From Catenulispora sp. MAP5-51 (GTDB lineage Bacteria > Actinomycetota > Actinomycetes > Streptomycetales > Catenulisporaceae): 64,000 nt of DNA. Location: positions 62,001 through 126,000 of the forward strand of contig NZ_JBGCCH010000010.1 in assembly GCF_041261205.1 (NCBI RefSeq), in the 5' to 3' direction. The translations under genes were made by a program, and so were the position numbers. Positions 15,612 through 27,740 of this stretch are shown here, piece after piece. The notes beneath the pieces were generated by a model that was given only the letters and a program-made list of their open reading frames with translations, was not told the DNA's origin and did not search any database. Numbering within the stretch: the stretch's first letter is position 1; each line of letters begins with the position of its first letter.

Positions 15612-16379
15612 ATGAAGCAGACATATGCCAGAGCCCTGGTGACCGGGGCCTCGTCCGGGTTCGGCGAGCAGTTCGCGCGGCAGCTGTCCGCGCGCGGGAC
15701 GGCGTTGGTGCTGGTGGCGCGCCGCGGCGACCGGCTGGAGAAGCTGGCCGCCGAACTGGGCACCGAGATCGAGATCCTGCCCGCCGACCTGACCGACCCG
15801 GCCGGGCTGGCCGTGGTCGAGGACCGCCTTCGCGATGCGGCCAAGCCGGTCGACCTGCTGGTGAACAACGCCGGCGTGGGCACCACCGGCGAGTTCGCCA
15901 AGCTGTCGGCGCAGGGCGAGACCGGCAAGGTCGCGCTGAACGTCATGGCGCTGATGCGGCTGTGCCACGCCGCGCTGCCGCGGATGACCGAGGCCCGGCA
16001 CGGCGGCATCCTCAACGTCTCCTCGCTGTCCAGCGCGACGCCCGCGCCGCGGGCCGCGACCTACGGCGCCACCAAGGCGTTCGTCACCTCGCTGAGCGAG
16101 AGCCTGAACCGCGAGTCCCGCAGGGCCGGCGTGCATGTCACGGCCCTGCTTCCGGGCCCGTCGGCGACCGAGCTCACCGACGCCGGGTTCGTGAACCTGC
16201 TGCCGCGCGTGTTCTGGCAGTCGCCGGAGGCGATCGTGGCGCGCGGGCTCGCGGCGGTGGCCTCGGGCAAGCCGGTGTGCATCCCGAGCCGGGTGCTGTC
16301 GGTCGCGACGGTCACGGGGTCCCGGATGCCCCGGTCCTTTCAATACCTGGTGGGAGAACGCCTGTTCGGGTCCAAGTGA
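15612..16379 (+). CDS. SDR-family NAD(P)-dependent oxidoreductase
   Basis: A 255-aa short-chain dehydrogenase with the nucleotide-binding TGASSGFG (about 10-17), NNAGVG (about 82-87), catalytic Ser in NVSSLSS (about 134-140) and YGATK (Tyr/Lys about 150-154). The Arg after the first strand pair (VARRGDRL) suggests an NADP preference. The C-terminal part has IVARGLAAVASGKPVCIPS, seen in the DltE-like subgroup. Substrate is unknown. It starts 2 bases after the upstream stop; a GTG at 15606 overlapping that stop (GTGA) is an alternative, so translation is coupled with the unknown 474-aa gene. Its 3' end overlaps the convergent gene by 68 bases. Confidence 0.9.
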   Translation: MKQTYARALVTGASSGFGEQFARQLSARGTALVLVARRGDRLEKLAAELGTEIEILPADLTDPAGLAVVEDRLRDAAKPVDLLVNNAGVGTTGEFAKLSAQGETGKVALNVMALMRLCHAALPRMTEARHGGILNVSSLSSATPAPRAATYGATKAFVTSLSESLNRESRRAGVHVTALLPGPSATELTDAGFVNLLPRVFWQSPEAIVARGLAAVASGKPVCIPSRVLSVATVTGSRMPRSFQYLVGERLFGSK

Positions 16380-17298
16380 TGCCGAACAGCGCGTAGACCT
16401 TCGTGATGAGTCCGGTGCCGCCGGAGTAGTGCTGAGGTTTGCCGCCCTGCGGGGTGATGGTGACCCCCTCGCATCCGACGGGGTCGGCGGTGACGGACGC
16501 CAGGCCCGGCAGCGTGATCAGGACCCGGGTGCCGTCGTCCATCGGGCAGTTGACGACCCCCGGCGTCTCCGGCGGCAGGGCGTTGAGCAGATCGACGATC
16601 TGGTGGACGACCAGCGGGGCGGTGGCCGTGACCGTGCGCGTCTCGCGGGCGGGCAGGGCGCTGTGGGCGCTCTGGGCCGACGGTGCGGTGGTCACCACGG
16701 ACACCGACGGCGTGTCGTAGCCGAGCTCGCTGGCGGGGGACCGCGTCGGGGTCCAGCCGACGGAGGCGTCGATCCGGATGACGGTGCGGCCGTCCGGTCC
16801 GCTCGCCGGCGTCACGGTCAGTGAGCTCTGCGGGGTCGGATACGAGAAGACCACGAAGCTCGGCGTGTTGGAACCGCTGCCCGATCCCGCCGGGGACGAG
16901 CCGGCCGGCCGGTCCGCCTGGACCCACGCCAGCACCTCGGCCGGCGACTGCGAGGTGGAGTACCAGGCGATCGAGGTGGCCCGGTCCTGGTCGGCCGACC
17001 AACTCGGCGGCCCTTGCAGACCCGATGGCACCGGATCCGGCCGCACCGTGGCCTTGCTCGACCCCGGCGGCGCCTGGAACGTGGTGAGGATCCGGTCGGC
17101 CTCGCGCTGGGCCGCCACCTCGTGGGGATCACTCGCTGAGGACGATCCTGCCGCGACCGCCGATCCGGTGGAGCCCGGCCCCGAGCCGGAGGACGACGCG
17201 TACGCCCCGACCGCCGCGCCAGTGACGACGGCTGTCGCGGCCAGCGTCATGCCGATCCATCCCGGGGTCTTCCGCAGTGTCGATCGAGGGGTAGCCAT
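16312..17298 (-). CDS. Exported or membrane-anchored hypothetical protein
   Basis: A 328-aa protein I cannot place in a family. It has a basic N-terminus, one hydrophobic segment (about 15-35), then a Ser/Gly/Ala-rich linker and an extracellular Thr/Ser/Pro-rich body with beta-like segments (TSIAWYSTSQSPAEVLAWVQ, TVIRIDASVGWTPT, APLVVHQIVDLLNALPPE) and two cysteines. It lies downstream of the penicillin-binding protein gene, but a strong terminator hairpin ends right at its start codon, so its expression may be separate from or attenuated relative to ponA. The 3' end overlaps the SDR gene tail-to-tail by 68 bases. Confidence 0.75.
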   Translation of the reverse strand: MATPRSTLRKTPGWIGMTLAATAVVTGAAVGAYASSSGSGPGSTGSAVAAGSSSASDPHEVAAQREADRILTTFQAPPGSSKATVRPDPVPSGLQGPPSWSADQDRATSIAWYSTSQSPAEVLAWVQADRPAGSSPAGSGSGSNTPSFVVFSYPTPQSSLTVTPASGPDGRTVIRIDASVGWTPTRSPASELGYDTPSVSVVTTAPSAQSAHSALPARETRTVTATAPLVVHQIVDLLNALPPETPGVVNCPMDDGTRVLITLPGLASVTADPVGCEGVTITPQGGKPQHYSGGTGLITKVYALFGITWTRTGVLPPGIERTGASGTP

Positions 17299-17299
17299 A

Positions 17300-17348
17300 A
17301 AACTTCGACGGGGCGCGCCGCCTTTCGGTTGCACGCCCCGTCGAGTTT
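17300..17348 (-). terminator. Rho-independent-type terminator after the PBP gene
   Basis: On the minus strand AAACTCGACGGGGCG pairs with CGCCCCGTCGAAGTTT (one bulged base), and the T-run GTTTT runs directly into the ATG of the next gene at 17298. It lies 25 bases after the PBP stop. This is the best factor-independent terminator in the window and could also hide the ribosome site of the next gene. Confidence 0.8.
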
Positions 17349-17372: not shown

Positions 17373-19598
17373 CTATTGGCCGCCGATGAACCCTCCGATG
17401 AAGCCGCCGTTCGCGCCGCCGTCCTGGCCGCCGTTGGCCTGCCCGGGCGGGTTGTTCGGCGGGTTCGGGTTCGCCGGCGGCTGCGTCGGCGCGGGGATGT
17501 CGCCGGGCAGTTCGGGCACCGAGAAGCCGGGCGGCGAGGTGCCGGCCAGGGCGCCGTTGATCGCCTCGCCCCAGATCGGGGCGGCCAGACAGCCACCGCA
17601 GACCTTGTCGTAGTACTGGCCGTGGATCTTCACGTTCACCAGGCCCTTGTCGCCGGGCTTGGGCGAGACCACGCCGACCCAGACCGCGGCGGCCAGGTTC
17701 GGGGTGTAGCCGTCGAACCAGGTCATCAGGCGGCTGTCGTTGGTACCGGTCTTGCCGGCCGCCGGGCCCGAGAAGTAGTCGCGGACCTTCGAGCCGGTGC
17801 CCTTGTCCACCACGCCCTGGAGCATCCCGGTCAGCTGGTCGGTCAGCGAGGGGTCGATGGTCTGGTGGCAGTCGGGGGTGGCGACCGGGTACTGCTTGCC
17901 GGAGGTGTCGGTGATCGAGGCGATCGCCGTGGGCTTGCAGTACATGCCGCGCGCGGCGAAGGTCGCGTAGGCGTTGGCCATCGCGATCGGCGTCACCTGG
18001 TTGGTGCCCAGGGTGAACGAGCCGATCTGCTCCAGGCGCTTGCCGGCGCCCTCGTCGCTGTCGATGGTCAGGCCGGCCGCGGCGGCCAGGCGGGCCGGTT
18101 CGCACAGGCCCGTCTGCTCCTGCAGCTTGATGAAGTAGTTGTTGACCGAGTTCCACAGCGCGCTGGTCATGGTCTGCGGACCCTGTTCGGCCTGGGTCTC
18201 ATCGGTCGGCTTCCACTTGGTGTCCTGGGTGAAGCCGGCCGGGGTGTCGCAGGTCGTGAACTTGGTCTGGCTCTCGTCGATCTGGTACGGCAGGTCCTGG
18301 ACGTACTGCGGGGTCAGGCCCTTCTCCATCGCGGCCATGGCCACGAAGGACTTGAAGGTCGAGCCGGCCTGGTACCCGTTGCCGCCGCCGTGCTTGGGGT
18401 CGGCGGCCAGGTTCAGGTAGGTCTGACCCTCCCCGGTGCCCATGTTCCGGCTCTGGGCCATGGCCTTGATCTGCCCGGTGCCGGGCTGGATCATCGCGAT
18501 CGCCGCGCCCGGGATGTCGGTGGCCGAGACGTTGTCGTTGATCGCCTTCTCGGCGGCCGCCTCCGTCTTCGGGTCCATCGTGGTCTTTATGGTCAGGCCG
18601 CCGCGGTTGAAGAAGGCCGCGCGGTCGGCGCTGGTCTTGCCGTAGATCGGGTCGTTCAGGATCTCCTGCTCGATGTACTCGCAGAAGAAGGCCGAACTGC
18701 CCGGCGCGTAGATGCAGCCGGAGTGCTGCGGCTGCAGGTTCAGGCCCAGCGGCATCGCCTTGAAGGCGGCGGCCTGCTGCGGGGTGATGTAGTGCACCGT
18801 CGGGTCGGCCATCCGGTCCAGCACGGTGTTGCGCCGGTCGGTGGCGGCCTGCGGGTGTTTGGCCGGGTCGTAGGCGACCGGGTTCTTCAGCATCCCGATC
18901 AGGGTCGCGGCCTGCGGGATGGTGAGCTGGCTGGCGTGCACCCCGAACCAGCGGTCGGCGGCGGTCTCGATGCCCGAGACGTTCTCGGCGAAGGGCACCA
19001 GGTTCAGGTAGCGCTCGAGGATCTCGGTCTTGGAGAACTTCTGCTCCACCGCGATCGCGTACTTCAGTTCCCGGACCTTGCGGGCCACCGAGTCGCCGGT
19101 GGCGTCGGCGTACGCGGCCTTGTTGTTGCCGGCCTGGAGCACCAGCACGTTCTTCACGTACTGCTGGGCGATCGAGGAGCCGCCCTGGTTGGAACCGCCC
19201 AGGTCGGAGACGAAGGCACGCATCGTGCCCTTGATGTCGATGCCGCCGTGCTCGAAGAACCGGGAGTCCTCGGTGGCCACCAGCGCCTGCCACACGTTCG
19301 GGCTGATGGCGCTGAAGGGCACGATCACCCGGTTGCCGAAGTCGCCCCAGACGTTCGCGATCACCGAGCCGTCGGAGGCCAGGATCTGCGAGCGCTGCGG
19401 CAGGTCCGGGGTCTTCAGGTCGTCCGGGATGTCCTCGAAGTGGTCCGAGGCGCTCTTGGCGGCCAGGCCCGCGGTGCCGACGAAGGGCAGTGCCATACCG
19501 GCCACCAGCACGCCGGCCAGCGCGCTGATCATCAACAGGCCGAACAGGGCGCGCAGGGGTCCGCTGCCGCGGAAGGGCCGGGGCGGGTGCGAAGCCAT
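17373..19598 (-). CDS. Class A bifunctional penicillin-binding protein (PonA2-like)
   Basis: Polymerises and crosslinks peptidoglycan outside the membrane. The 741-aa protein has one N-terminal membrane segment (about 16-44). A GT51 glycosyltransferase domain follows with catalytic Glu in EDSRFFEHGGID (E110) and QGGSSIAQQYVKN (138-150). The transpeptidase domain has STFK (S413), SVN (484-486) and KTGT (616-619). The tail is Gly/Pro/Asn-rich (about 700-741). It is divergent from the WhiB gene, as ponA2 is from whiB4 in mycobacteria and the corresponding PBP gene near wblA in streptomycetes. That synteny supports the PonA2-like name, although no C-terminal PASTA domain is seen. Confidence 0.95.
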   Translation of the reverse strand: MASHPPRPFRGSGPLRALFGLLMISALAGVLVAGMALPFVGTAGLAAKSASDHFEDIPDDLKTPDLPQRSQILASDGSVIANVWGDFGNRVIVPFSAISPNVWQALVATEDSRFFEHGGIDIKGTMRAFVSDLGGSNQGGSSIAQQYVKNVLVLQAGNNKAAYADATGDSVARKVRELKYAIAVEQKFSKTEILERYLNLVPFAENVSGIETAADRWFGVHASQLTIPQAATLIGMLKNPVAYDPAKHPQAATDRRNTVLDRMADPTVHYITPQQAAAFKAMPLGLNLQPQHSGCIYAPGSSAFFCEYIEQEILNDPIYGKTSADRAAFFNRGGLTIKTTMDPKTEAAAEKAINDNVSATDIPGAAIAMIQPGTGQIKAMAQSRNMGTGEGQTYLNLAADPKHGGGNGYQAGSTFKSFVAMAAMEKGLTPQYVQDLPYQIDESQTKFTTCDTPAGFTQDTKWKPTDETQAEQGPQTMTSALWNSVNNYFIKLQEQTGLCEPARLAAAAGLTIDSDEGAGKRLEQIGSFTLGTNQVTPIAMANAYATFAARGMYCKPTAIASITDTSGKQYPVATPDCHQTIDPSLTDQLTGMLQGVVDKGTGSKVRDYFSGPAAGKTGTNDSRLMTWFDGYTPNLAAAVWVGVVSPKPGDKGLVNVKIHGQYYDKVCGGCLAAPIWGEAINGALAGTSPPGFSVPELPGDIPAPTQPPANPNPPNNPPGQANGGQDGGANGGFIGGFIGGQ

Positions 19599-20018
19599 GG
19601 GGGACAGACTACGACGTCGACCTAGGCGCGGGCGGGCGGGTCGCGCGGCCGGGGCTTTCGTGCCCTGTCGGCACCTGCCGCGGCGGGTCCGGGAGGCACC
19701 TTCGCCGGCGCCCGGTTGGGGAGGCGTGCGGGGCCCCGGTGTATGAGAACAGCAGGGTGTGGCATCTGCGGCGATCTAGTCACAAAGGACCATAGGAATT
19801 GAGTACATCGGGGACTGTTGCGCCCTCGGGATCTTCCGTATTGTGCTGTTTGGCTGCCGAGATCGACCCTTCCACCAGGTCGGATGCGTTTCGGCCCGAC
19901 CGACGGGCCGGTGCGCGACAGCGCGTCCGGGTCCGTGGACGCCTGTCGGTGAGGGGAAGGGCCGCTGTCGGCTCCGCCGTTGGGGGAGCTCGATCTTTGC
20001 GAGAGGACGGCACCGGCG
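19599..20018. promoter_or_regulatory. 420-bp divergent promoter region between PBP and WhiB genes
   Basis: No gene is supported here. The part next to the WhiB gene (19740-20018) is less GC-rich and holds a weak promoter-like pair TTGCGC (19818) and TATTGT (19839). GAGAGGA lies 11 bases before the WhiB ATG. The part next to the PBP gene is GC-rich and featureless. The length suggests a long leader for the WhiB gene, but this is not shown. Confidence 0.45.
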
Positions 20019-20414
20019 ATGAGCTGGGTAGAGGACTGGACCGTTGTGGCGGCGTGCCGCGGCATGGATCCGGATGAGCTGTTCGTGCAGGGAGCAGCTC
20101 AGAACCGGGCGAAGACCGTGTGCTCGGGGTGCCCGGTGCGCACCGAGTGCCTGGCCGACGCCCTGGACAACCGCGTCGAGTACGGCGTGTGGGGCGGGAT
20201 GACCGAGCGCGAGCGGCGTGCGCTGCTGCGCCGGCGCCCCGAGGTGCGCTCCTGGCGGCAGTTCCTGGAGTCCGCCAAGGAGCACTACGAGCGCAACGGC
20301 GCCGAGCGCGGCGGGGGTGAGCTGCCCACCGAGGTCGACCCGCGGTTCGCCGCCGCGGCCCAGGCCGCCATCCCCCGCCAGCGCAGCGAGGCCGGCTCCT
20401 TCGGCCGGGCCTGA
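20019..20414 (+). CDS. wblA: WhiB-family [4Fe-4S] transcriptional regulator (WhiB4/WblA-like)
   Basis: A 131-aa WhiB-like protein. The four iron-sulfur cysteines are at about residues 12 (AACRGMDPD), 35 and 38 (TVCSGCPVR) and 44 (ECLADAL). The family signature GVWGGMTERERRALLRR follows (about 56-72), then a long C-terminal extension. The cluster senses O2/NO and the protein works with the principal sigma factor. WhiB4 in Mycobacterium and WblA in Streptomyces sit in the same neighbourhood (PonA2-type PBP, ArsA pair, Crp), so the name is based on sequence plus synteny. ATG 20019 is chosen; an in-frame TTG 13 codons upstream is less likely. Confidence 0.88.
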   Translation: MSWVEDWTVVAACRGMDPDELFVQGAAQNRAKTVCSGCPVRTECLADALDNRVEYGVWGGMTERERRALLRRRPEVRSWRQFLESAKEHYERNGAERGGGELPTEVDPRFAAAAQAAIPRQRSEAGSFGRA

Positions 20415-20424
20415 CCGGCGCGGA

Positions 20425-20444
20425 TCGGCGCCGGCCGGCGCCGA
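20425..20444 (+). terminator. 20-bp GC palindrome after the WhiB gene
   Basis: A perfect 20-bp self-complementary sequence (TCGGCGCC-GGCC-GGCGCCGA) starts 11 bases after the WhiB stop. It can fold into a tight stem and is a likely terminator, although no U-run follows. Confidence 0.55.
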
Positions 20445-20562
20445 CCGGTACATCGTCCGCATCGTCGAGGTGTGATCAAGCGGGTCCGTCAGGGCCCGCT
20501 GACGGTGCCCATGCTCATCGTGCCCGAGGCGGTCCGGCCCGGGCGCGGGGAGCAAGGCTGTT

Positions 20563-20589
20563 CGGTCAGCACGGTCAGCACGGTCAGCA
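20563..20589. repeat. Three 9-bp tandem repeats (CGGTCAGCA)
   Basis: CGGTCAGCA occurs three times in direct succession. GGTCAGCGC occurs twice more at about 20617-20640. All lie between the convergent WhiB and MBL genes. Nothing else is seen in this 232-base gap besides the palindrome near the WhiB stop. Confidence 0.8.
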
Positions 20590-20646
20590 CAGATCGCTCA
20601 GTGCTTAGTGTTTATTGGTCAGCGCCTATCGGTCAGCGCCCAGTGC

Positions 20647-21453
20647 TCAGGCACCGGCGTTGAGGTACTCCAACTGGGCGCGCACCGACATCTCGGCGGC
20701 CAACCGCACCGCCGGGTCCACGTCGGCGTACACCCTGGCCACCACGTCGGCGGCGCTCTCGTCGCCGGCGGCCAGCGCCGCGCGCACCTGTTCCAGCCGG
20801 GTCCGGCGGTGCTCGAGGTAGAACTCGATGACGCCGAGCGCGTCGGCCGGTACCGGTCCGTGGCCCGGCAGCACCGTGTCCACCTCGTGCGCGGCGGCCA
20901 GGTCGCGCAGCCGGCGCAGCGTGCCGAGGTAGTCCCCCAGCCGCCCGTCGGGATGGGCGACCACGGTGGTGCCCCGGCCCAGGATGGTGTCGCCGGTCAG
21001 GAGCGCACGGTCGTCGGGCAGAACGAAGCACATGCTGTCGCCGCTGTGCCCGGGCGTGGCGACCACGTCCAGCCGCAGTCCGTCCATGTCCACCACGTCG
21101 CCCTCGGCCAGCCCTTCCGAGCCGAGCCGGAAGCGCGGGTCCAGCGCGCGCACCGGTGCGCCGGTCAGCTCGGCCAGCCGCGGCGCGCCCTCGGAGTGGT
21201 CGAAGTGGCCGTGCGTGAGCAGGATCAGCCCGATCCGCAGCTCGCGCTCCTCGGCGGTGGCCCGGACCAGCCGCAGGTGGTCCTCGTCCAGCGGTCCGGG
21301 GTCGACGACCACCGCGCGGCGGGCCCCGGGTTCGGCGAGCAGCCAGGTGTTGGTGCCGTCCAGGGTCATCGGGTCGGCGTTCGGCGCCAGGATGAGCGTC
21401 GCGCGCTCGGTCCCGGCCTCGGGCCGGACACCCGGCTTCATCAGGTCGCTCAT
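20647..21453 (-). CDS. MBL-fold metallo-hydrolase (Rv3677c/LACTB2-like)
   Basis: A 268-aa metallo-beta-lactamase-fold enzyme with the complete metal motif THGHFDHSEG (about 80-89), PGHSGDS (about 136-142), TGDTILG (about 154-160) and LPGHGPV (about 193-199). The C-terminal helical extension (FYLEHRRTRLEQV and on) is that of LACTB2-type hydrolases, some of which are ribonucleases. It is the last gene of a minus-strand run kinase-DUF4177-RidA-NUDIX-MBL, 13 bases after the NUDIX stop. Mycobacteria carry the matching gene (Rv3677c) beside crp. The actual substrate is not known. Confidence 0.92.
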   Translation of the reverse strand: MSDLMKPGVRPEAGTERATLILAPNADPMTLDGTNTWLLAEPGARRAVVVDPGPLDEDHLRLVRATAEERELRIGLILLTHGHFDHSEGAPRLAELTGAPVRALDPRFRLGSEGLAEGDVVDMDGLRLDVVATPGHSGDSMCFVLPDDRALLTGDTILGRGTTVVAHPDGRLGDYLGTLRRLRDLAAAHEVDTVLPGHGPVPADALGVIEFYLEHRRTRLEQVRAALAAGDESAADVVARVYADVDPAVRLAAEMSVRAQLEYLNAGA

Positions 21454-21466
21454 CCCCGCCGCGTCC

Positions 21467-22336
21467 TCACAGTTCCCATTCCAGGTGCCAGGACCCGTCG
21501 TCGTGGCGCCGGACCGTGGCCATGATCGGCTTCAGCGGCCGCTCGGCCGCGGCCCGCACCGCCTCGGCCGCGGTGGCGAAGCCGTGGACCTCGCGCAGGG
21601 TGGTGACGGTCGGCGGGAGCATCAGGGCCCGCCCGGCGATGTGGTCGTCAATAGCCGTCCCGGGCTGCATCCAGATGGTCGACTCGGTCTCCCCCGACAC
21701 GTCGCGGGTCCGCTGGCCGGCCGGCAGCGCCGCGACGAAGAACGCGGTGTCGTACCGCCGGGGCTCGAACTCCGGGGTGATCCAGCGGGACCAGCCGCCG
21801 AGCAGGTCCGTACGCAGCACGAGGGACCTTTTTGCGAGGAAGCCCGCCAGTGATGTTTCCCGTGAAACCAGGGCCCGGCGGTCGGCCTCCCACTCCTCGT
21901 CGGTGGTGTCGGCGACCACGGAGTGCTCGTCGGGCCCGGCGAACAGCACGCCGGACTCCTCGAACGTCTCCCGCACCGCGGCGCACAGCAGCGCGCGGGC
22001 CTCGGCCTCGTCGCTGCCGAACCGCCGGGCCCACTCGGCCGCCGACGGCCCGACCCAGGCGATCTCGGCGTCGGCGTCGCGCGGGTCCACCCGGCCGCCG
22101 GGGAAGGCGTAGAAGCCGCCGGCGAAGGACATCGAGGCCGCGCGCTTGAGGAGGTAGACGTCCGGCGGGCCGTCCGGGCAGTCGCGCAGCAGCACGACCG
22201 TGGCGGCGTGCTTCGGCGGCACCGGGGTGAACTCGCCGCGCTCGTAGGCGGCGATCTGTTCCTCCCAGCCCTCCGGCACGTGCGCGCTGAGCCGGCTGCC
22301 GGCCGGGGCTATGTAGTCCCCGCCTTGCTGCGACAT
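21467..22336 (-). CDS. NUDIX hydrolase
   Basis: A 289-aa NUDIX protein. The Nudix box is split by an insertion: GGFYAFPGGRVDPRDADAE (about 71-89) and REtFEESGVLFAG (about 118-130), with the catalytic REx2EE present as RETFEESG. The N-terminal AATVVLLRDCPDGPPDVYLLKRA is typical for CoA-pyrophosphatase/large actinobacterial NUDIX proteins. The C-terminal half is an extra helical domain. It hydrolyses a nucleoside diphosphate-X compound, identity unknown. It lies between RidA and MBL genes on the same strand; a 13-bp hairpin precedes it. Confidence 0.9.
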   Translation of the reverse strand: MSQQGGDYIAPAGSRLSAHVPEGWEEQIAAYERGEFTPVPPKHAATVVLLRDCPDGPPDVYLLKRAASMSFAGGFYAFPGGRVDPRDADAEIAWVGPSAAEWARRFGSDEAEARALLCAAVRETFEESGVLFAGPDEHSVVADTTDEEWEADRRALVSRETSLAGFLAKRSLVLRTDLLGGWSRWITPEFEPRRYDTAFFVAALPAGQRTRDVSGETESTIWMQPGTAIDDHIAGRALMLPPTVTTLREVHGFATAAEAVRAAAERPLKPIMATVRRHDDGSWHLEWEL

Positions 22337-22352
22337 GCGTTCCCCTTCCAGT

Positions 22353-22382
22353 TCTGGTTCCCGCCGGACGGCGGGAACCAGA
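22353..22382 (-). other. 13-bp hairpin between RidA and NUDIX genes
   Basis: TCTGGTTCCCGCC (22353-22365) pairs exactly with GGCGGGAACCAGA (22370-22382), loop GGAC. It sits 16 bases before the NUDIX start, within the same minus-strand run, so it may be a partial terminator or an RNA-processing signal. Confidence 0.55.
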
Positions 22383-22390
22383 TGGGTGAA

Positions 22391-22426
22391 GCTCAGCTCT
22401 CAGGTACGGCTCAGCTCTCAGGTACG
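22391..22426. repeat. Two 18-bp tandem repeats
   Basis: GCTCAGCTCTCAGGTACG occurs twice in direct succession, followed by the first six bases of a third unit. It lies just after the RidA stop. No function is evident. Confidence 0.85.
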
Positions 22427-22428
22427 GC

Positions 22429-22890
22429 TCAGACCTCGACGGTCAGCTCGACCTCGACCGGCGCGTCCAGCGGCAGCACGGCCACGCCGACCGCCGAGCG
22501 GGCGTGCCGGCCGGCCTCGCCGAACACCGCGCCGAGCAGCTCCGAGGCGCCGTTGATGACGCCGGGCTGCCCGGTGAAGTCCGGGGCGCTGGCCACGAAG
22601 CCGACCACCTTCACGACCCGCTTGACCTTGGCCAGGTCGCCGATCTCGGACTTCACCGCGGCCAGCGCGTTCAGCGCGCAGCGCTGCGCCAGGGCCTTGG
22701 CGTCCTCCGGGCTGACCTGGTCGCCGACCTTGCCGATCATCGGCAGCGCGCCGTCGACCATCGGCAGCTGGCCGGAGGTGAAGACGAGGTTGCCGCTGCG
22801 CAGCACCGGGATGTAGGCCGCGACCGGGGCCGCGACCTCGGGCAGCTTCAGGCCCAGCTCGGTCAGCTTCTCTTCGGGGTGGGTCGTCAT
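22429..22890 (-). CDS. RidA/YjgF family enamine deaminase-like protein
   Basis: A 153-aa protein of the YjgF/YER057c/UK114 family, close to the variety encoded beside arsA/crp in actinobacteria (Rv3678c-like). It has [26 protein letters not shown] (about 23-48), [15 protein letters not shown] (about 72-86) and a C-terminal [27 protein letters not shown]. The canonical arginine is present in ARSAVGV. RidA proteins hydrolyse reactive enamine/imine intermediates from PLP enzymes. The ATG is 3 bases after the DUF4177 stop, so the two are translationally coupled. Confidence 0.92.
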
Positions 22891-22893
22891 GTC

Positions 22894-23058
22894 TTAGGAC
22901 TCCGTCGTCTTCGGACGCTTCAGGTAGGCGACCAGCTGGTCCGGGTTCGGGCCCGGGACGACCTGGACGAGCTCCCAGCCGTCCTCGCCCCAGGTGTCGA
23001 GGATCTGCTTGGTGGCGTGCACCAGCAGCGGCACTGTCGCGTATTCCCACTTGGTCAT
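22894..23058 (-). CDS. DUF4177 mini-protein (54 aa)
   Basis: A small gene coding 54 residues, MTKWEYATVPLLVHATKQIL and on, then WGEDGWELVQVVPGP and a C-terminal VAYLKRPK. The pattern KWEYxxVPL...ILNxxGxxGWELVxV...AYLKRP is that of DUF4177, a tiny family of unknown function. It lies between the kinase gene (gap 26 bases) and RidA (gap 3 bases) on the same strand. Its small size means it is easily missed by gene callers. Its fixed place beside ridA suggests a shared role, but this is inference. Confidence 0.85.
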   Translation of the reverse strand: MTKWEYATVPLLVHATKQILDTWGEDGWELVQVVPGPNPDQLVAYLKRPKTTES

Positions 23059-23084
23059 AGGCCAACCTTAAGGGGCCGGGGGGC

Positions 23085-24647
23085 TCAGCCGTCGCCGGGC
23101 AGCTGGCCGGCCGAGTTCGTCATGACGCAGTAGATGTTCTGGTTGACGGTCCAGTTGGCCGGCAGGTTCTTGCCGTTCCAGAGGTTCTCGCTGGGGATGA
23201 GCGCGTAGTAGTCGTAGTGGCTGCCCGCGGGGTCCGCCCAGGGCCCGATCAGGCGGTCGGTCCAGCACAGCTGCTTGCCCAGGGCCGTCAATGCGGCGAC
23301 GCCCGGGTAGGGGATCGGGCTGTTGCCGTCGGTGCCGTACTGGCTGTACGAGGAGTTGGTGACCGAGCTCACGTAGTAGAGCTCCAGATCATGAGCGCTC
23401 TTGCACTCCGCGTCCTGGTAGGTCGGGGTGCCGGGGACGAACGGCGGGCCGCTCATGCACGTCTGGCCGCTGCCGATGGGCAGGCTGGGGAAGTCGGTCC
23501 CGGCGCCGCCGAGGGTGTAGACCTTCACGACGTCCGAGGCCGGGACGTCGGCCTTCTTCTGCGTCTTCTTGCCCGAACTCGATCCCGCGCCGTAGGCGGC
23601 GAATCCCGCGACAGCAGCCGCGACCAGCACCGTGGCCGCGAACGCCCCGGCGGCCTTGGCCCGGGACCGCTTCGGCGGGACCGGTGAAGCCGTTCCCGCG
23701 GGGCTGCCCGGATCCGGATCCTCGGGGGCGCCGAGCGTCGCGGTCGCCACTCCGGTCGGGGACATCAGCATCGTGCCCTGCGCGGTCATGGCTCGGCCCG
23801 GGTCGGCGATCACCGCGTCCAGCAGCGTCCGGACCTGCGAGGCGGTCAACCGGCCTGCGGGCGCGGAGGCCAGCATCCCGGACACCGCGGCCGCCAGCGG
23901 GCCCTGCGCGTTCGTCAGGTAGGGGACCTCGTTCAGGACCGCCCCGAAGGTCGCGGCGGTGGTGTCGCGCTCGAACGCGGCCTTGCCCTCGATCGCGAAG
24001 TACAGCACCGCCCCGAGCGACCACAGGTCCGAGGCCGGGCTCGCCTCGTGCCCGGAGAGCCGCTCGGGCGCCAGGTAGGCCGGGGAGCCGATGACCGCGC
24101 CGGTCTTGGTCAGGGTGGGGTCGTCGGCGGCCTGCGCGATGCCGAAGTCGGTGAGCTTGGCCCGGCCGGTGCCGCCGACCATGATGTTCGAGGGCTTCAC
24201 GTCGCGGTGCACGATCCCGGCCTCGTGGGCGGCCTCCAGGGCCGAGAGGACCTGGCGCCCCACGTCGGCCACGGCGTGCGCGGAGAGCGGACCGGTGCGG
24301 CGGACCAGCTGCGCCAGGGTCGGCGCCTCGACCAGCTCCATGACGATGAACACGGAGCCGTTGTCGTGGACCACGTCGAAGACGGTCACCACGGCCGGGT
24401 CGTTCAGCCGGCCGGCGGTGCGGGCCTCGCGCAGGATGCGCTGCTCGAACTCGGCCCGCTCGGCGACGGTGACGTCCTCGCCGAGCCGCATCTCCTTCAC
24501 CGCGACCGCCCGGCCGATCACCCGGTCCTCGGCGCGCCACACGATCCCCATGCCGCCGCGGCCGAGCTCGGCGTGCAGGACATAACGTTCCGCGATCACG
24601 CGCTCGGTTCTCGGCGCCAAACGCTCGGTGTCGACATCGTCGCTCAT
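23085..24647 (-). CDS. Membrane Ser/Thr protein kinase (PknB-type)
   Basis: A 520-aa Hanks-type kinase. The kinase domain (about 20-285) has the glycine loop GRGGMGIVW (29-37), invariant Lys51 (VAVKEM), catalytic HRDVKPSN (D149) and DFGIA (D167), with LAPE and DLWSLG. A Pro-rich linker leads to one membrane segment (about 332-353). The extracellular C-terminal domain (about 365-520) has paired cysteines and Tyr-rich stretches; it is not PASTA. All catalytic residues are present, so it should be active. It is divergent from the arsA pair and heads the DUF4177-RidA-NUDIX-MBL run. The signal it senses is unknown. Confidence 0.95.
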   Translation of the reverse strand: MSDDVDTERLAPRTERVIAERYVLHAELGRGGMGIVWRAEDRVIGRAVAVKEMRLGEDVTVAERAEFEQRILREARTAGRLNDPAVVTVFDVVHDNGSVFIVMELVEAPTLAQLVRRTGPLSAHAVADVGRQVLSALEAAHEAGIVHRDVKPSNIMVGGTGRAKLTDFGIAQAADDPTLTKTGAVIGSPAYLAPERLSGHEASPASDLWSLGAVLYFAIEGKAAFERDTTAATFGAVLNEVPYLTNAQGPLAAAVSGMLASAPAGRLTASQVRTLLDAVIADPGRAMTAQGTMLMSPTGVATATLGAPEDPDPGSPAGTASPVPPKRSRAKAAGAFAATVLVAAAVAGFAAYGAGSSSGKKTQKKADVPASDVVKVYTLGGAGTDFPSLPIGSGQTCMSGPPFVPGTPTYQDAECKSAHDLELYYVSSVTNSSYSQYGTDGNSPIPYPGVAALTALGKQLCWTDRLIGPWADPAGSHYDYYALIPSENLWNGKNLPANWTVNQNIYCVMTNSAGQLPGDG

Positions 24648-24763
24648 CTATGGGCCCCCCTCGGCCAAGTTCCCTGATAAGCACCACGGGTACAACGCCT
24701 CATCACACTAGCGCCAGGGGTAGGCCGTCCCAGGAATGTTCGCCGCATGGTTAGGCTGGGGCC

Positions 24764-25759
24764 ATGAGCCGACCCTGGCCGCCGGAGTGCCGCCTGCACA
24801 TCGTGACCGGAAAAGGCGGCACCGGGAAGACGACGGCGGCCGCGGCGCTGGCCCTGGCCCTGGCCGAGGGCGGCGGCCGGGTGCTGCTGGTGGAGGTCGA
24901 GGGCCGGCAGGGGATCGCGCAGCTCTTCGACACCGCCCCGCTGCCCTACGAGGAGCGCAGCATCGCGATCGCTCCCGGCGGCGGCGAGGTGTTCGCCCTG
25001 GCCATCGATCCGGAGCAGGCGCTGCTCGAGTACCTGGACATGTTCTACAAGCTGGGCCGGGCCGGCAAGGCGCTGAAGAAGTTCGGCGCCATCGACTTCG
25101 CGACCACCGTGGCCCCCGGCATGCGCGACGTGCTGCTCACCGGCAAGGCCTGCGAGGCGGTCCGCCGCACCGCCGCCGACCGTCCGGGCGCCGCCTTCGC
25201 CTACGACGCCGTGGTGATGGACGCCCCGCCCACCGGCCGCATCACCCGGTTCCTGAACGTGAACACCGAGGTCGCCGGCCTGGCTCGGGTCGGCCCGGTG
25301 AAGAACCAGGCCGAGGCGGTCATGCGGGTCCTGACCTCGCCGCAGACCGCGGTCCACCTGACCACGGTGCTGGAGGACATGCCGGTCCAGGAGACGCTGG
25401 ACGGCGTCGGGGACCTGCGGGCCGCCGGACTGCCGGTCGGCACGATCCTGGTCAACATGGTCCGCACCGCGCACCTGGCCGTCGGCAAGCGCGCGGTGGT
25501 CAGCGCGGCGGCCGAGAAGCGGGTCGCGACCCTGCTGCGGCCCTACGGCATCGACACCGCCGACACCCGCGCCCTGGCCGAGCTCGGCCGCGAGCACGCC
25601 GAGCGGCTGGCCCTGGAAGAGGTCCAGCGGCGCGCCCTGGACGGCGCGGGCCGGCCGGTGGTCGAGCTGCCGCTGCTCACCGACGGCATCGACCTGGGCG
25701 GACTCTACGAACTGGCCGCGGCCCTGACCGCCGCGGCCGAGACCGGGGAGGCGGTATGA
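24764..25759 (+). CDS. ArsA/GET3-family ATPase, first subunit
   Basis: A 331-aa deviant-Walker-A ATPase with GKGGTGKTT (about 16-24) and the A-loop region GNGGAGKTT-like replaced by a single P-loop. Switch motifs include VVMDAPPTGRITRFLN (about 150-165). It matches the first of the two ArsA-like proteins conserved next to whiB4/crp in mycobacteria (Rv3679). Rv3679/Rv3680 form a heteromeric ATPase linked to anion transport in mycobacteria. It lacks the cysteine triad for arsenite. The second subunit overlaps by 4 bases (ATGA), giving coupled, near-equal synthesis. Confidence 0.93.
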   Translation: MSRPWPPECRLHIVTGKGGTGKTTAAAALALALAEGGGRVLLVEVEGRQGIAQLFDTAPLPYEERSIAIAPGGGEVFALAIDPEQALLEYLDMFYKLGRAGKALKKFGAIDFATTVAPGMRDVLLTGKACEAVRRTAADRPGAAFAYDAVVMDAPPTGRITRFLNVNTEVAGLARVGPVKNQAEAVMRVLTSPQTAVHLTTVLEDMPVQETLDGVGDLRAAGLPVGTILVNMVRTAHLAVGKRAVVSAAAEKRVATLLRPYGIDTADTRALAELGREHAERLALEEVQRRALDGAGRPVVELPLLTDGIDLGGLYELAAALTAAAETGEAV

Positions 25760-26904
25760 GCGTGACCCCGAAGCATCTGGACGTCGACGGTCTGCTCACC
25801 GACCCGGCCACCTCCATCGTCGTGTGCTGCGGCTCCGGCGGCGTGGGCAAGACCACCACCGCCGCGGCGCTCGCCCTGCGGGCCGCCGAGCAGGGCCGCA
25901 AGGTCGTGGTCCTGACCATCGACCCGGCCCGCCGGCTGGCGCAGTCCCTGGGCCTGACCGAGCTGGACAACAGCCCGCGCGAGGTCGAGGGCGTCCAGGG
26001 CCCCGGCCGGCTGTTCGCGATGATGCTCGACATGCAGCGGACCTTCGACGAGATCGTCGAGAAGCACGCCGATCCGGACCGCGTCGACCAGATCCTTCAG
26101 AACCCCTTCTACCAGTCGCTGTCCGCGGGCTTCTCCGGCACGCAGGAGTACATGGCGATGGAGAAGCTGGGCCAGCTGCGCCGCACGGGCGACGAGACCG
26201 GCAGCTGGGACCTGATCATCGTCGACACCCCGCCGAGCCGCTCCGCCCTGGACTTCCTGGACGCCCCGAACCGGCTGGCCGGCTTCCTGGACGGCCGCCT
26301 GATCAAGGTCCTCATGGCCCCGGCCAAGGCCGGCGGGGGCTTCGCCATGAAGGTGCTGGCCTCCGGCTTCTCGATCGCCACGATGGCGCTGAACAAGCTG
26401 CTGGGCTCGGGCCTGCTGCACGACGTCCAGACCTTCGTCGGCTCCCTGGAATCGATGTTCGGCGGCTTCCGCCAGCGCGCCGAGGAGACGTACCGGCTGC
26501 TGCAGGCCGAGGGCACGGCGTTCCTGGTCGTGGCCGCGCCCGAACCGGACGCCCTGCGCGAGGCCGCCTACTTCACCGAGCGGCTGGCCGCCGAGAACAT
26601 GCCGCTGGCCGGCCTGATCCTGAACCGGGTGCACCCGGTGGCGGTGCCGGAGCTGTCGGCGGAGAAGGCCCTGGCGGCGGCCGAGGAGCTGGACGCGGAC
26701 TCCCCCGACCCGCGCCTGGCCGCGGGCCTGCTGCGGCTGCACGCCGAGCGGATGCGGCTCAGCGCGCGCGAGCGGCGGCTCGCGGACCGGTTCACGGCGT
26801 CGCAGCCGCATGTCGCGGTGGCGGAGATCCCGGCGCAGCCGGGGGACATCCACGACCTGGACGGGCTGCGGCTGGCCGGGGACCTGCTGGCCGGCGGCGC
26901 CTGA
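25756..26904 (+). CDS. ArsA/GET3-family ATPase, second subunit
   Basis: A 382-aa partner ATPase with Walker A CGSGGVGKTTTAAALAL (about 25-41), the A-loop VLTIDPARRLAQSLGL (about 53-68) and switch II VDTPPSRSALDFLDAP (about 156-171). A C-terminal part binds nucleotide (VVAAPEPDALREAAYFTERL, about 257-276). It matches mycobacterial Rv3680. The ATG at 25756 overlaps the first subunit's stop; a longer frame continuing upstream through that gene is only a shadow. A 24-bp tandem repeat and a terminator hairpin separate it from the convergent crp gene. Confidence 0.94.
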   Translation: MSVTPKHLDVDGLLTDPATSIVVCCGSGGVGKTTTAAALALRAAEQGRKVVVLTIDPARRLAQSLGLTELDNSPREVEGVQGPGRLFAMMLDMQRTFDEIVEKHADPDRVDQILQNPFYQSLSAGFSGTQEYMAMEKLGQLRRTGDETGSWDLIIVDTPPSRSALDFLDAPNRLAGFLDGRLIKVLMAPAKAGGGFAMKVLASGFSIATMALNKLLGSGLLHDVQTFVGSLESMFGGFRQRAEETYRLLQAEGTAFLVVAAPEPDALREAAYFTERLAAENMPLAGLILNRVHPVAVPELSAEKALAAAEELDADSPDPRLAAGLLRLHAERMRLSARERRLADRFTASQPHVAVAEIPAQPGDIHDLDGLRLAGDLLAGGA

Positions 26905-26944
26905 CGCGAGCGGCGCGGGCCGACAGGATCAGAAAGCAGAAAAG

Positions 26945-27016
26945 CGGATCTGGCGCCGGGCAGCAAGGCGGATCTGGCACCGACCAGAAAACCGGATCTG
27001 CCCCCGGGCAGCACTC
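26945..27016. repeat. Three 24-bp imperfect tandem repeats
   Basis: Units at 26945, 26969 and 26993 each begin CGGATCTG and share the pattern GGATCTG-N2-CCG-N3-CAG. They lie in the gap between convergent arsA2 and crp-type genes, just before a strong hairpin. The unit length is a multiple of three, but no start codon or ribosome site is associated. Confidence 0.75.
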
Positions 27017-27017
27017 A

Positions 27018-27045
27018 GCCCGGCGCGCATCCCACCGCGCCGGGC
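27018..27045. terminator. Bidirectional terminator hairpin between arsA2 and crp
   Basis: GCCCGGCGCG (27018-27027) and CGCGCCGGGC (27036-27045) pair perfectly with an 8-base loop. It lies between two convergent genes, 20 bases from the crp stop. Confidence 0.68.
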
Positions 27046-27065
27046 CCGGAACCGTCTGAACAGTG

Positions 27066-27740
27066 CTACCGCGAGCGCTGGCTCAGCCGCTCCACGTTCG
27101 TCAGCACCACGGCGCGCGCCTCCAGGCGCAGCCAGCCGCGGCCGGCGAAGTCGGCCAGCGCCTTGTTCACGGTCTCGCGGGAGGCGCCGACCAGCTGCGC
27201 CAGCTCCTCCTGCGTCATGTCGTGGGCGACGTGGATGCCGTCCTCGGCCGGGGTGCCGAAGCGCGCCGACAGGTCCAGCAGGGCCTTGGCCACGCGGCCG
27301 GGCACGTCTGAGAACACCAGATCGGACATCGAGTCGTTGGTGCGCCGCAGCCGCCGGGCGATGGCGCGCAGCAGGGCGCGGGCCACGTCGGGGCGGCCGG
27401 CCAGCCACGGGGTCAGCTCGTCGGAGCTCAGGCCCAGCAGGGTCGAGTCCACCAGGGCGGTGGCGCCGGCCGAGCGCGGGCCCGGGTCGAACAGGGACAG
27501 CTCGCCGAACATCTCGCCGGGGCCGAGCACCGCGACCAGGTTCTCGCGCCCGTCGCCGCTGGTGCGGCCGAGCTTGATCTTCCCGCGCAGCACCACGTAC
27601 AGCGAGTCCCCCGGGTCGCCCTCGTGGAACAGGAGGTCACCTCGGGCCAGCTCGATCTCGTTCATGGAGGCGCGCAGGGACGCGGCCGCGTCCTGATCGA
27701 GCGTGGCGAAGAGGGGCGTACGGCGTAGTACGTCGTCCAC
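27066..27740 (-). CDS. crp: Crp/Fnr-family transcriptional regulator (Crp)
   Basis: A 224-aa cyclic-nucleotide-type regulator. The cNMP-binding domain (about 8-118) has GDLLFHEGDPGDSLYVVLRGKIKLG and the phosphate-binding GEMFGELSLFDPGPRSAGATA (about 76-96), with the PRSA Arg/Ser pair used for cAMP. The C-terminal winged helix (about 150-215) has TQEELAQLVGASRETVNKALADFAGRGWL. It is very close in pattern to mycobacterial Crp (Rv3676) and streptomycete Crp, which lie in the same gene neighbourhood. It is convergent with the arsA pair. Confidence 0.95.
   Translation of the reverse strand: MDDVLRRTPLFATLDQDAAASLRASMNEIELARGDLLFHEGDPGDSLYVVLRGKIKLGRTSGDGRENLVAVLGPGEMFGELSLFDPGPRSAGATALVDSTLLGLSSDELTPWLAGRPDVARALLRAIARRLRRTNDSMSDLVFSDVPGRVAKALLDLSARFGTPAEDGIHVAHDMTQEELAQLVGASRETVNKALADFAGRGWLRLEARAVVLTNVERLSQRSR

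What the first reader, a model, noticed from the sequence alone, without database searches (positions are those of the whole stretch)
17373..27740. Expanded ponA2-whiB4/wblA-arsA-crp neighbourhood with a kinase
The order PBP, WhiB, MBL, NUDIX, RidA, ArsA, ArsA, Crp matches mycobacterial and streptomycete synteny, but a membrane Ser/Thr kinase and a DUF4177 protein lie in it. It may be one redox/cell-wall control unit in which the kinase phosphorylates a neighbour.
Basis: partly seen in the sequence, partly recalled or inferred. Interest (0 to 1): 0.55.

Follow-up and report, generated by a model that had tools for sequence, protein, structure and literature searches.

The report
Genus-specific kinase in conserved actinobacterial cluster
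A well-known block of cell-wall and redox genes has, in the soil bacterium Catenulispora, been partly turned around and has gained a membrane-bound protein kinase whose role and targets are untested.

Summary
The window is Catenulispora. Two parts of the reading need correction.

(1) DUF4177 is no intruder: it lies upstream of ArsA1 in 134 of 139 non-Catenulispora loci. The kinase is the newcomer: all 10 Catenulispora genomes examined carry it at the same place, 0 of 139 other loci do.

(2) The order is not that of Streptomyces or of the other families sampled: crp> <MBL <NUDIX <RidA <DUF4177 | ArsA1> ArsA2> <whiB ponA2>. In Catenulispora the inner block MBL-ArsA2 is inverted relative to both flanks, with breakpoints between convergent genes.

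The kinase lies between DUF4177 and a retained arsA1 promoter-like motif. It is probably the first gene of a kinase-DUF4177-RidA-NUDIX-MBL operon. Its ectodomain (four invariant cysteines) is Septum_form-like; a Streptomyces kinase has the same layout. The catalytic domain is under purifying selection; the ectodomain evolves faster.

That the kinase phosphorylates a neighbour is plausible but untested; sequence tests gave no clear substrate. A passenger role at a recurrent insertion point is nearly as likely. Modest interest.

The parts
17373..19598 (-). Class A penicillin-binding protein (ponA2-like): transglycosylase + transpeptidase
   Evidence: PF00912 1e-55, PF00905 9.6e-26
20019..20414 (+). 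WhiB-family regulator (whiB4/wblA position); ORF opens at 19980, first ATG about 20019
   Evidence: PF02467 2.2e-25
20647..21453 (-). Metallo-beta-lactamase-fold hydrolase
   Evidence: PF00753 7.5e-19
21467..22336 (-). NUDIX hydrolase
   Evidence: PF00293 22.6 bits against cut-off 21.1
22429..22890 (-). RidA-like protein (YjgF_endoribonc)
   Evidence: PF14588 2.8e-23
22894..23058 (-). DUF4177 protein, 54 aa; member of the common set
   Evidence: PF13783 25.2 bits, cut-off 25; found upstream of ArsA1 in 124 of 129 + 10 of 10 other loci
23085..24647 (-). Membrane Ser/Thr protein kinase, 520 aa, genus-specific addition and probable first gene of the operon
   Evidence: PF00069 6.5e-49; HRDVKPSN, DFG and glycine loop present; 10 of 10 Catenulispora genomes
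23832..24584 (-). kinase catalytic domain (residues 22-272)
   Evidence: dN/dS 0.225 over 10 genomes (computed on residues 1-272)
23595..23651 (-). single predicted transmembrane helix (residues 333-351)
   Evidence: hydropathy maximum 2.03
23088..23594 (-). presumed extracytoplasmic domain, four invariant Cys (397, 415, 461, 507), Septum_form-like
24648..24763 (.). divergent region between the kinase and arsA1; conserved blocks in the 10 genomes aligned
24752..24757 (+). TAGGCT, -10-like hexamer 6 nt before the arsA1 start codon; the same motif stands upstream of arsA1 in several Streptomyces and in the f3 genome
   Evidence: my reading of the output; promoter role inferred
24764..25759 (+). 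ArsA/Get3-like ATPase 1 (BagA-like position)
   Evidence: PF02374 1.7e-20
25756..26904 (+). ArsA/Get3-like ATPase 2 (BagB-like position); start overlaps the end of arsA1
   Evidence: PF02374 1.2e-24
27066..27740 (-). Crp-family cAMP-type regulator
   Evidence: PF00027 8.9e-26, PF13545 3.4e-16

Best explanation
This is the conserved actinobacterial crp / MBL-NUDIX-RidA-DUF4177 / ArsA-ArsA / whiB / ponA2 neighbourhood, in a form specific to Catenulispora. Shown by comparison: (a) the inner block from MBL to ArsA2 is inverted between convergent gene ends, and (b) a single-pass Ser/Thr kinase gene stands between DUF4177 and arsA1. The kinase keeps its catalytic motifs and four ectodomain cysteines in all ten genomes. 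Inferred: it is transcribed with DUF4177, RidA, NUDIX and MBL; its Septum_form-like ectodomain senses an envelope condition (cell wall or extracytoplasmic redox) and sets the phosphorylation of at least one cytosolic product of the locus. The ArsA pair, DUF4177/RidA and Crp are the candidates. The insertion thus added an envelope-sensing input to an existing redox/cell-wall housekeeping module.
For: The kinase ectodomain is found in 10 of 10 genus members, single copy, at the same place, and in 0 of 50 other relatives. In a phylum sample of 396 genomes only the own genome and one weak hit (3.3e-4) match. The kinase lies between DUF4177 and ArsA1 in all 10 Catenulispora genomes (window + 9); none of 139 other loci has a kinase there (129, of which 124 show DUF4177; 10). 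Spacer to DUF4177 is short: 26 nt in the window, 23-37 nt in six genomes, about 40-56 nt in four; no terminator-like site was predicted there. dN/dS: catalytic 0.225, ectodomain 0.514: purifying selection with a faster sensor part. Four Cys invariant. Septum_form: 9 of 10 members match, best 3.9e-4; profile-profile probability 92-94%, reversed control 0.1%. A Streptomyces-order kinase ORF (L258) also carries Septum_form.
Against: No direct evidence of a substrate. RidA, NUDIX, MBL, WhiB and DUF4177 show 0 genus-specific fixed Ser/Thr sites by the test used. The invariant KTTES tail of DUF4177 is nearly as invariant at the DNA level and overlaps the apparent ribosome-binding site of RidA, so it is no evidence of a phospho-acceptor. 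The genome holds about 44-50 kinases, so adjacency is weak evidence. The DUF4177/arsA1 gap exceeds 300 bp in 18 of 124 and 2 of 10 other loci: insertions there are common. The ectodomain misses the Septum_form curated cut-off.
Confidence: 0.42

Rival explanations
1. Passenger. One of many Catenulispora kinases landed in a spot that tolerates insertions; it senses and signals to proteins elsewhere, and its neighbours are incidental.
For: 44-50 kinases in the genome; gap over 300 bp in 18 of 124 and 2 of 10 other loci, four with an extra WhiB, one f3 genome with DoxX/SRPBCC-like ORFs (L052; named by my reading, no family search); the nearest kinases outside the genus lie away from arsA1 by their coordinates.
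Against: Present at the same place in all 10 genomes of the genus with the operon-like spacer kept.
Confidence: 0.38
2. Cis effect. The main consequence is transcriptional: DUF4177-RidA-NUDIX-MBL lost its own promoter beside arsA1 and now depends on the kinase promoter and any kinase autoregulation.
For: The arsA1 -10-like TAGGCT is kept, while DUF4177 now follows the kinase stop by some 23-56 nt; the DUF4177-RidA junction is spaced with an SD-like GGAG here, unlike the seven outgroup junctions printed.
Against: The kinase keeps its catalytic motifs under purifying selection, so it is not merely a promoter carrier.
Confidence: 0.15
3. Chance or misassembly: the inversion or kinase is an artefact of one assembly.
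For: None found; the window genome is in 87 contigs.
Against: Same arrangement in independent assemblies, including a single-contig genome of 10,467,782 bp, the size published for C. acidiphila.
Confidence: 0.01

Closest known systems
Mycobacterial Rv3676 (crp)-Rv3682 (ponA2) region with BagA/BagB (Rv3679/Rv3680) and WhiB4
   Same: Same gene families (the Rv gene order and names apart from BagAB are recalled). BagAB are cited as protecting against glycerol and nitric-oxide toxicity (passages of PMC10597346).
   Different: The inner block is inverted and a kinase is inserted in Catenulispora.
Streptomyces wblA neighbourhood
   Same: Same set including NUDIX; the arsA1 -10-like motif is shared by several
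   Different: No kinase between DUF4177 and ArsA1 in any Streptomyces locus examined; WhiB, where the contig reaches it, lies next to ArsA2, not MBL.
Actinobacterial Hanks-type receptor kinases (PknA/PknB-like)
   Same: Catalytic domain matches solved PknA (7.8e-50), PknE and PknB; single TM and ectodomain
   Different: Septum_form-like four-Cys ectodomain; own monophyletic clade with a long stem among 59 kinases.
Streptomyces-order kinase ORF in L258 (631 aa) with Septum_form ectodomain
   Same: Kinase and Septum_form in one ORF
   Different: 41% identity in the catalytic domain; at another place in its genome.

Membership tests
Conserved actinobacterial crp-arsA-whiB-ponA2 neighbourhood | gene content Crp, MBL, RidA, DUF4177, ArsA1, ArsA2, WhiB, PBP together | tested here: met
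Conserved actinobacterial crp-arsA-whiB-ponA2 neighbourhood | common order and orientation (crp> <MBL ... ArsA2> <whiB ponA2>) | tested here: not met
   inner block inverted
Hanks-type Ser/Thr protein kinase | Pkinase domain over cut-off; glycine loop, HRD and DFG motifs | tested here: met
   167 bits against 31.7; motifs at residues 29, 147, 167
Hanks-type Ser/Thr protein kinase | kinase activity | not testable with these tools
   needs biochemistry
Septum_form (PF13845) | match over Pfam's curated cut-off (25 bits) | tested here: not met
   12.8 bits for the window protein; 9 of 10 members match at E up to 1, best 3.9e-4
Septum_form (PF13845) | shared Cys/His pattern and profile similarity | tested here: met
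   hhalign 92-94%, reversed control 0.1%; templates were picked by part of this pattern from Pfam-positive loci, so somewhat favourable
ArsA/BagAB ATPases | ArsA_ATPase domain over cut-off, P-loop | tested here: met
   73.9 and 87.5 bits against 24.3; P-loops found
Eukaryotic-type Get3 | CXXC zinc motif (recalled) | tested here: not met
   Cys at 9 and 130 (ArsA1) and 24 and 25 (ArsA2) only

The most novel reading that the evidence does not exclude
Catenulispora converted a widely conserved redox/cell-wall module into an envelope-controlled one: a Septum_form-type receptor kinase, transcribed with DUF4177, RidA, NUDIX and MBL, phosphorylates the BagAB-type ATPases and/or Crp. Crp carries 7 genus-fixed Ser/Thr residues at sites where under 5% of the other loci have Ser or Thr. 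Comparing species with and without the kinase would then reveal what the still poorly understood DUF4177-RidA-BagAB module does.
Probability: 0.15. Interest if true: 0.6.

Novelty: new variant of a known kind. Interest (0 to 1): 0.28.

Why it matters
The neighbourhood is very stable across the actinobacteria sampled, yet the joint role of DUF4177, RidA and the two ArsA-type ATPases is poorly known (my judgement from the few papers seen). A lineage that wired a receptor kinase into it offers a handle: the signal sensed and the protein phosphorylated would point to what the module does. If the kinase is a passenger, the locus is still a clear example of an inversion that preserves transcription units.

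Tried and rejected
Rejected as evidence. Columns filled in fewer than 30% of the outgroup were left out of the Ser/Thr count, so the tail may not have been scored there.

Genus-specific Ser/Thr in neighbours: 22 of 212 genus-specific fixed sites overall; Crp 7 of 22 against 15 of 190 in the other eight, Fisher p 0.003 uncorrected. PBP 6 of 98 (fewer than the rest, p 0.07), ArsA1 5 of 25 (p 0.15), ArsA2 4 of 25 (p 0.30), WhiB 0 of 20, NUDIX 0 of 11, RidA 0 of 6, MBL 0 of 5, DUF4177 no site. A lead only.

Origin of the kinase: a tree of 59 kinase domains (10 locus kinases, 20 of the best hits outside the genus, 29 others of the window genome) gave a monophyletic locus clade (support 100/100, stem 0.66) with no close relative among them. 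Other Catenulispora genomes' paralogues were not in it. Best own-genome paralogue 49%.

Structure: ectodomain AlphaFold2 model mean pLDDT 63; 31 PDB matches at E up to 10, none at or below 0.001; uninformative.

Promoters: the consensus scan found 0 sigma-70-like sites. The TAGGCT reading is mine and the motif is not visible in every locus printed there.
Full report
Identity. The window is contig 10, bases 62001-126000, of a 10.9 Mb genome in 87 contigs. The genus is Catenulispora: a genome labelled 'same genus' (G001) shares its locus sequence with the named record C. rubra DSM 44948 (L134; the stretch tested is identical to L043). Another (G004) has one contig of 10,467,782 bp, the size published for C. 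acidiphila (passages of PMC3035231).

Anatomy. PBP 17373-19598(-), WhiB ORF 19980-20414(+), MBL 20647-21453(-), NUDIX 21467-22336(-), RidA 22429-22890(-), DUF4177 22894-23058(-), kinase 23085-24647(-), ArsA1 24764-25759(+), ArsA2 25756-26904(+), Crp 27066-27740(-). The kinase is 520 aa: catalytic domain 22-272 with intact glycine loop, HRDVKPSN and DFG, one hydrophobic helix near 333-351, and about 170 presumed outside residues with four Cys.

Neighbourhood. I classified 139 records holding ArsA1 (recounted): 10 Catenulispora records (9 genomes besides the window; L134 repeats L043) and 129 others, mostly Streptomyces plus 39 regions from other families. Ten further regions from families f5, f7 and f8 were added. 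Streptomyces are over-represented and some records may be one species twice, so these are counts of loci, not of independent events. Outside the genus the usual order is crp> <MBL (<NUDIX) <RidA <DUF4177 | ArsA1> ArsA2> <whiB ponA2>. 'ArsA2> <whiB' holds in 124 of 129 and 10 of 10. Of the five exceptions four (L228, L236, L239, L248) have ponA2-whiB inverted on the same side and one (L195) shows no WhiB. 'crp> <MBL' holds in 108 of 110 and 9 of 9 where a Crp was found; the two exceptions (L053, L145) have NUDIX and MBL turned. DUF4177 lies upstream of ArsA1 in 124 of 129 and 10 of 10; no kinase match stands left of ArsA1 on any of the 129 stretches. In one search one genome (L279) has a kinase match about 4-5 kb beyond MBL. 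L155 (Streptomyces tanashiensis) has one about 4 kb beyond ponA2.

In Catenulispora the order is <ponA2 whiB> <MBL <NUDIX <RidA <DUF4177 <kinase | ArsA1> ArsA2> <crp. WhiB next to MBL holds in 8 of 8 genomes that reach it and Crp next to ArsA2 in 9 of 9, window included; L045 and L046 lack one side or both. The simplest account is an inversion of the MBL-ArsA2 block, both ends between convergent genes. In L048 (same family; Actinospica is my guess) an nth-like gene stands beside crp (named by my reading). In the four Catenulispora genomes searched its homologue lies about 38-43 kb from crp, so the outside has changed as well.

The kinase is the newcomer. Its ectodomain is single copy in 10 of 10 genus members and 0 of 50 other relatives. 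In a phylum sample of 396 genomes the only other match was G382 at 3.3e-4, itself a Septum_form protein (2.1e-10). The kinase clade is monophyletic in a 59-row tree (100/100) on a long stem. The tree holds 29 further kinases of the window genome and 20 of the best hits outside the genus, not all kinases. The DUF4177-arsA1 gap is over 300 bp in 18 of 124 other loci and in 2 of 10, so this is a recurrent insertion point. Four loci have an extra WhiB there, and the f3 genome (L052) has ORFs that look like DoxX and SRPBCC proteins by eye.

Selection and regulation. Mean pairwise dN/dS over the genus: kinase catalytic 0.225, ectodomain 0.514, ArsA1 0.133, ArsA2 0.077, DUF4177 0.067, Crp 0.021, PBP 0.309 (simple Nei-Gojobori, averages over non-independent pairs). 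The kinase stop lies 26 nt from DUF4177 in the window, 23-37 nt in the six genomes with a clear start, about 40-56 nt in the others. The divergent region (116 bp in the window) is conserved in blocks. TAGGCT (TAGTCT in three genomes) stands 6 nt before the arsA1 start; the same motif precedes arsA1 in several Streptomyces and in L052, but not visibly in every locus printed. Reading this as a leaderless -10 element is inference. On it, the kinase entered between that promoter and DUF4177.

Ectodomain. Pfam places 9 of 10 members near Septum_form at E up to 1, best 3.9e-4, below the curated cut-off. A profile of 17 Septum_form stretches (16 without G382) aligns over 92 (95) columns at 94% (92%) probability, with 0.1% for the reversed control. 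The stretches were chosen partly by a Cys/His pattern, which favours the match. A plain search of those Septum_form loci with the ectodomain profile was significant only for G382. One Streptomyces-order kinase ORF has the same layout (L258); the other 20 of 21 Septum_form loci showed no kinase domain on the stretch held. I therefore call it Septum_form-like, not a confirmed member. The AlphaFold2 model (mean pLDDT 63) gave no significant PDB match.

Does it act on a neighbour? Nothing here shows it. Genus-fixed Ser/Thr sites: none in RidA, NUDIX, MBL, WhiB or DUF4177; Crp 7 of 22 (Fisher 0.003 uncorrected, about 0.03 over nine proteins); ArsA1 5 of 25; ArsA2 4 of 25; PBP 6 of 98. The DUF4177 tail is explained as well by a ribosome-binding constraint. 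With 44-50 kinases in the genome adjacency alone is weak, though presence at one place in all ten genomes argues against a recent neutral insertion.

Literature. PMC10597346 (passages) identifies MSMEG_6193/6195 as bagAB (Rv3679/Rv3680) and cites their role against glycerol and nitric oxide; the two primary papers are not held. PMC12216072 (passages) reports Rv3679/Rv3680 mutants with enhanced fitness under streptomycin and ponA2 mutants with reduced fitness under rifampicin. PMC5473688 (passages) describes WhiB4 as a redox regulator in the beta-lactam response. PMC4255298 (passages) gave WblA's developmental role. My searches list no paper on this kinase among the 15 and 12 shown of 603 and 5,198; I saw listings and abstract starts only. 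One search listed two papers on Rv3676 with kinase terms, neither opened.

Verdict. A known, conserved gene neighbourhood in a genus-specific variant: block inversion plus one receptor kinase.

Noticed in passing
window 20647-26904 against flanks: The MBL-ArsA2 block is inverted relative to crp and whiB-ponA2 in Catenulispora, breakpoints between convergent gene ends.
   Followed up: yes
G000:C10:132308-133024 (about 43 kb right of crp): The nth-like gene next to crp in L048 of the same family lies about 38-43 kb from crp in the four Catenulispora genomes searched.
   Followed up: partly
L219, L231, L244, L252; L052; L233, L240, L242, L248, L253: The DUF4177-arsA1 divergent gap is a recurrent insertion point: an extra WhiB in four loci, DoxX/SRPBCC-like ORFs in L052 (by eye), several kb in others.
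   Followed up: partly
window 27066-27740: Crp is almost frozen within the genus (dN/dS 0.021) yet carries 7 genus-fixed Ser/Thr residues rare elsewhere.
   Followed up: partly
window 22890-22920: DUF4177-RidA junction: spaced with an SD-like GGAG and a KTTES tail in Catenulispora, unlike the junctions in the seven outgroup loci printed.
   Followed up: yes
L228, L236, L239, L248: Four loci have ponA2 and whiB inverted as a pair (ArsA2> <ponA2 whiB>); three of the four also show no RidA or DUF4177 within the stretch.
   Followed up: no
window about 16312-17310: ORF beside ponA2 (possibly secreted, my reading), no Pfam match, fast evolving (dN/dS 0.67), found in 7 of 10 Catenulispora stretches (two of the other three are cut by contig ends).
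   Followed up: no
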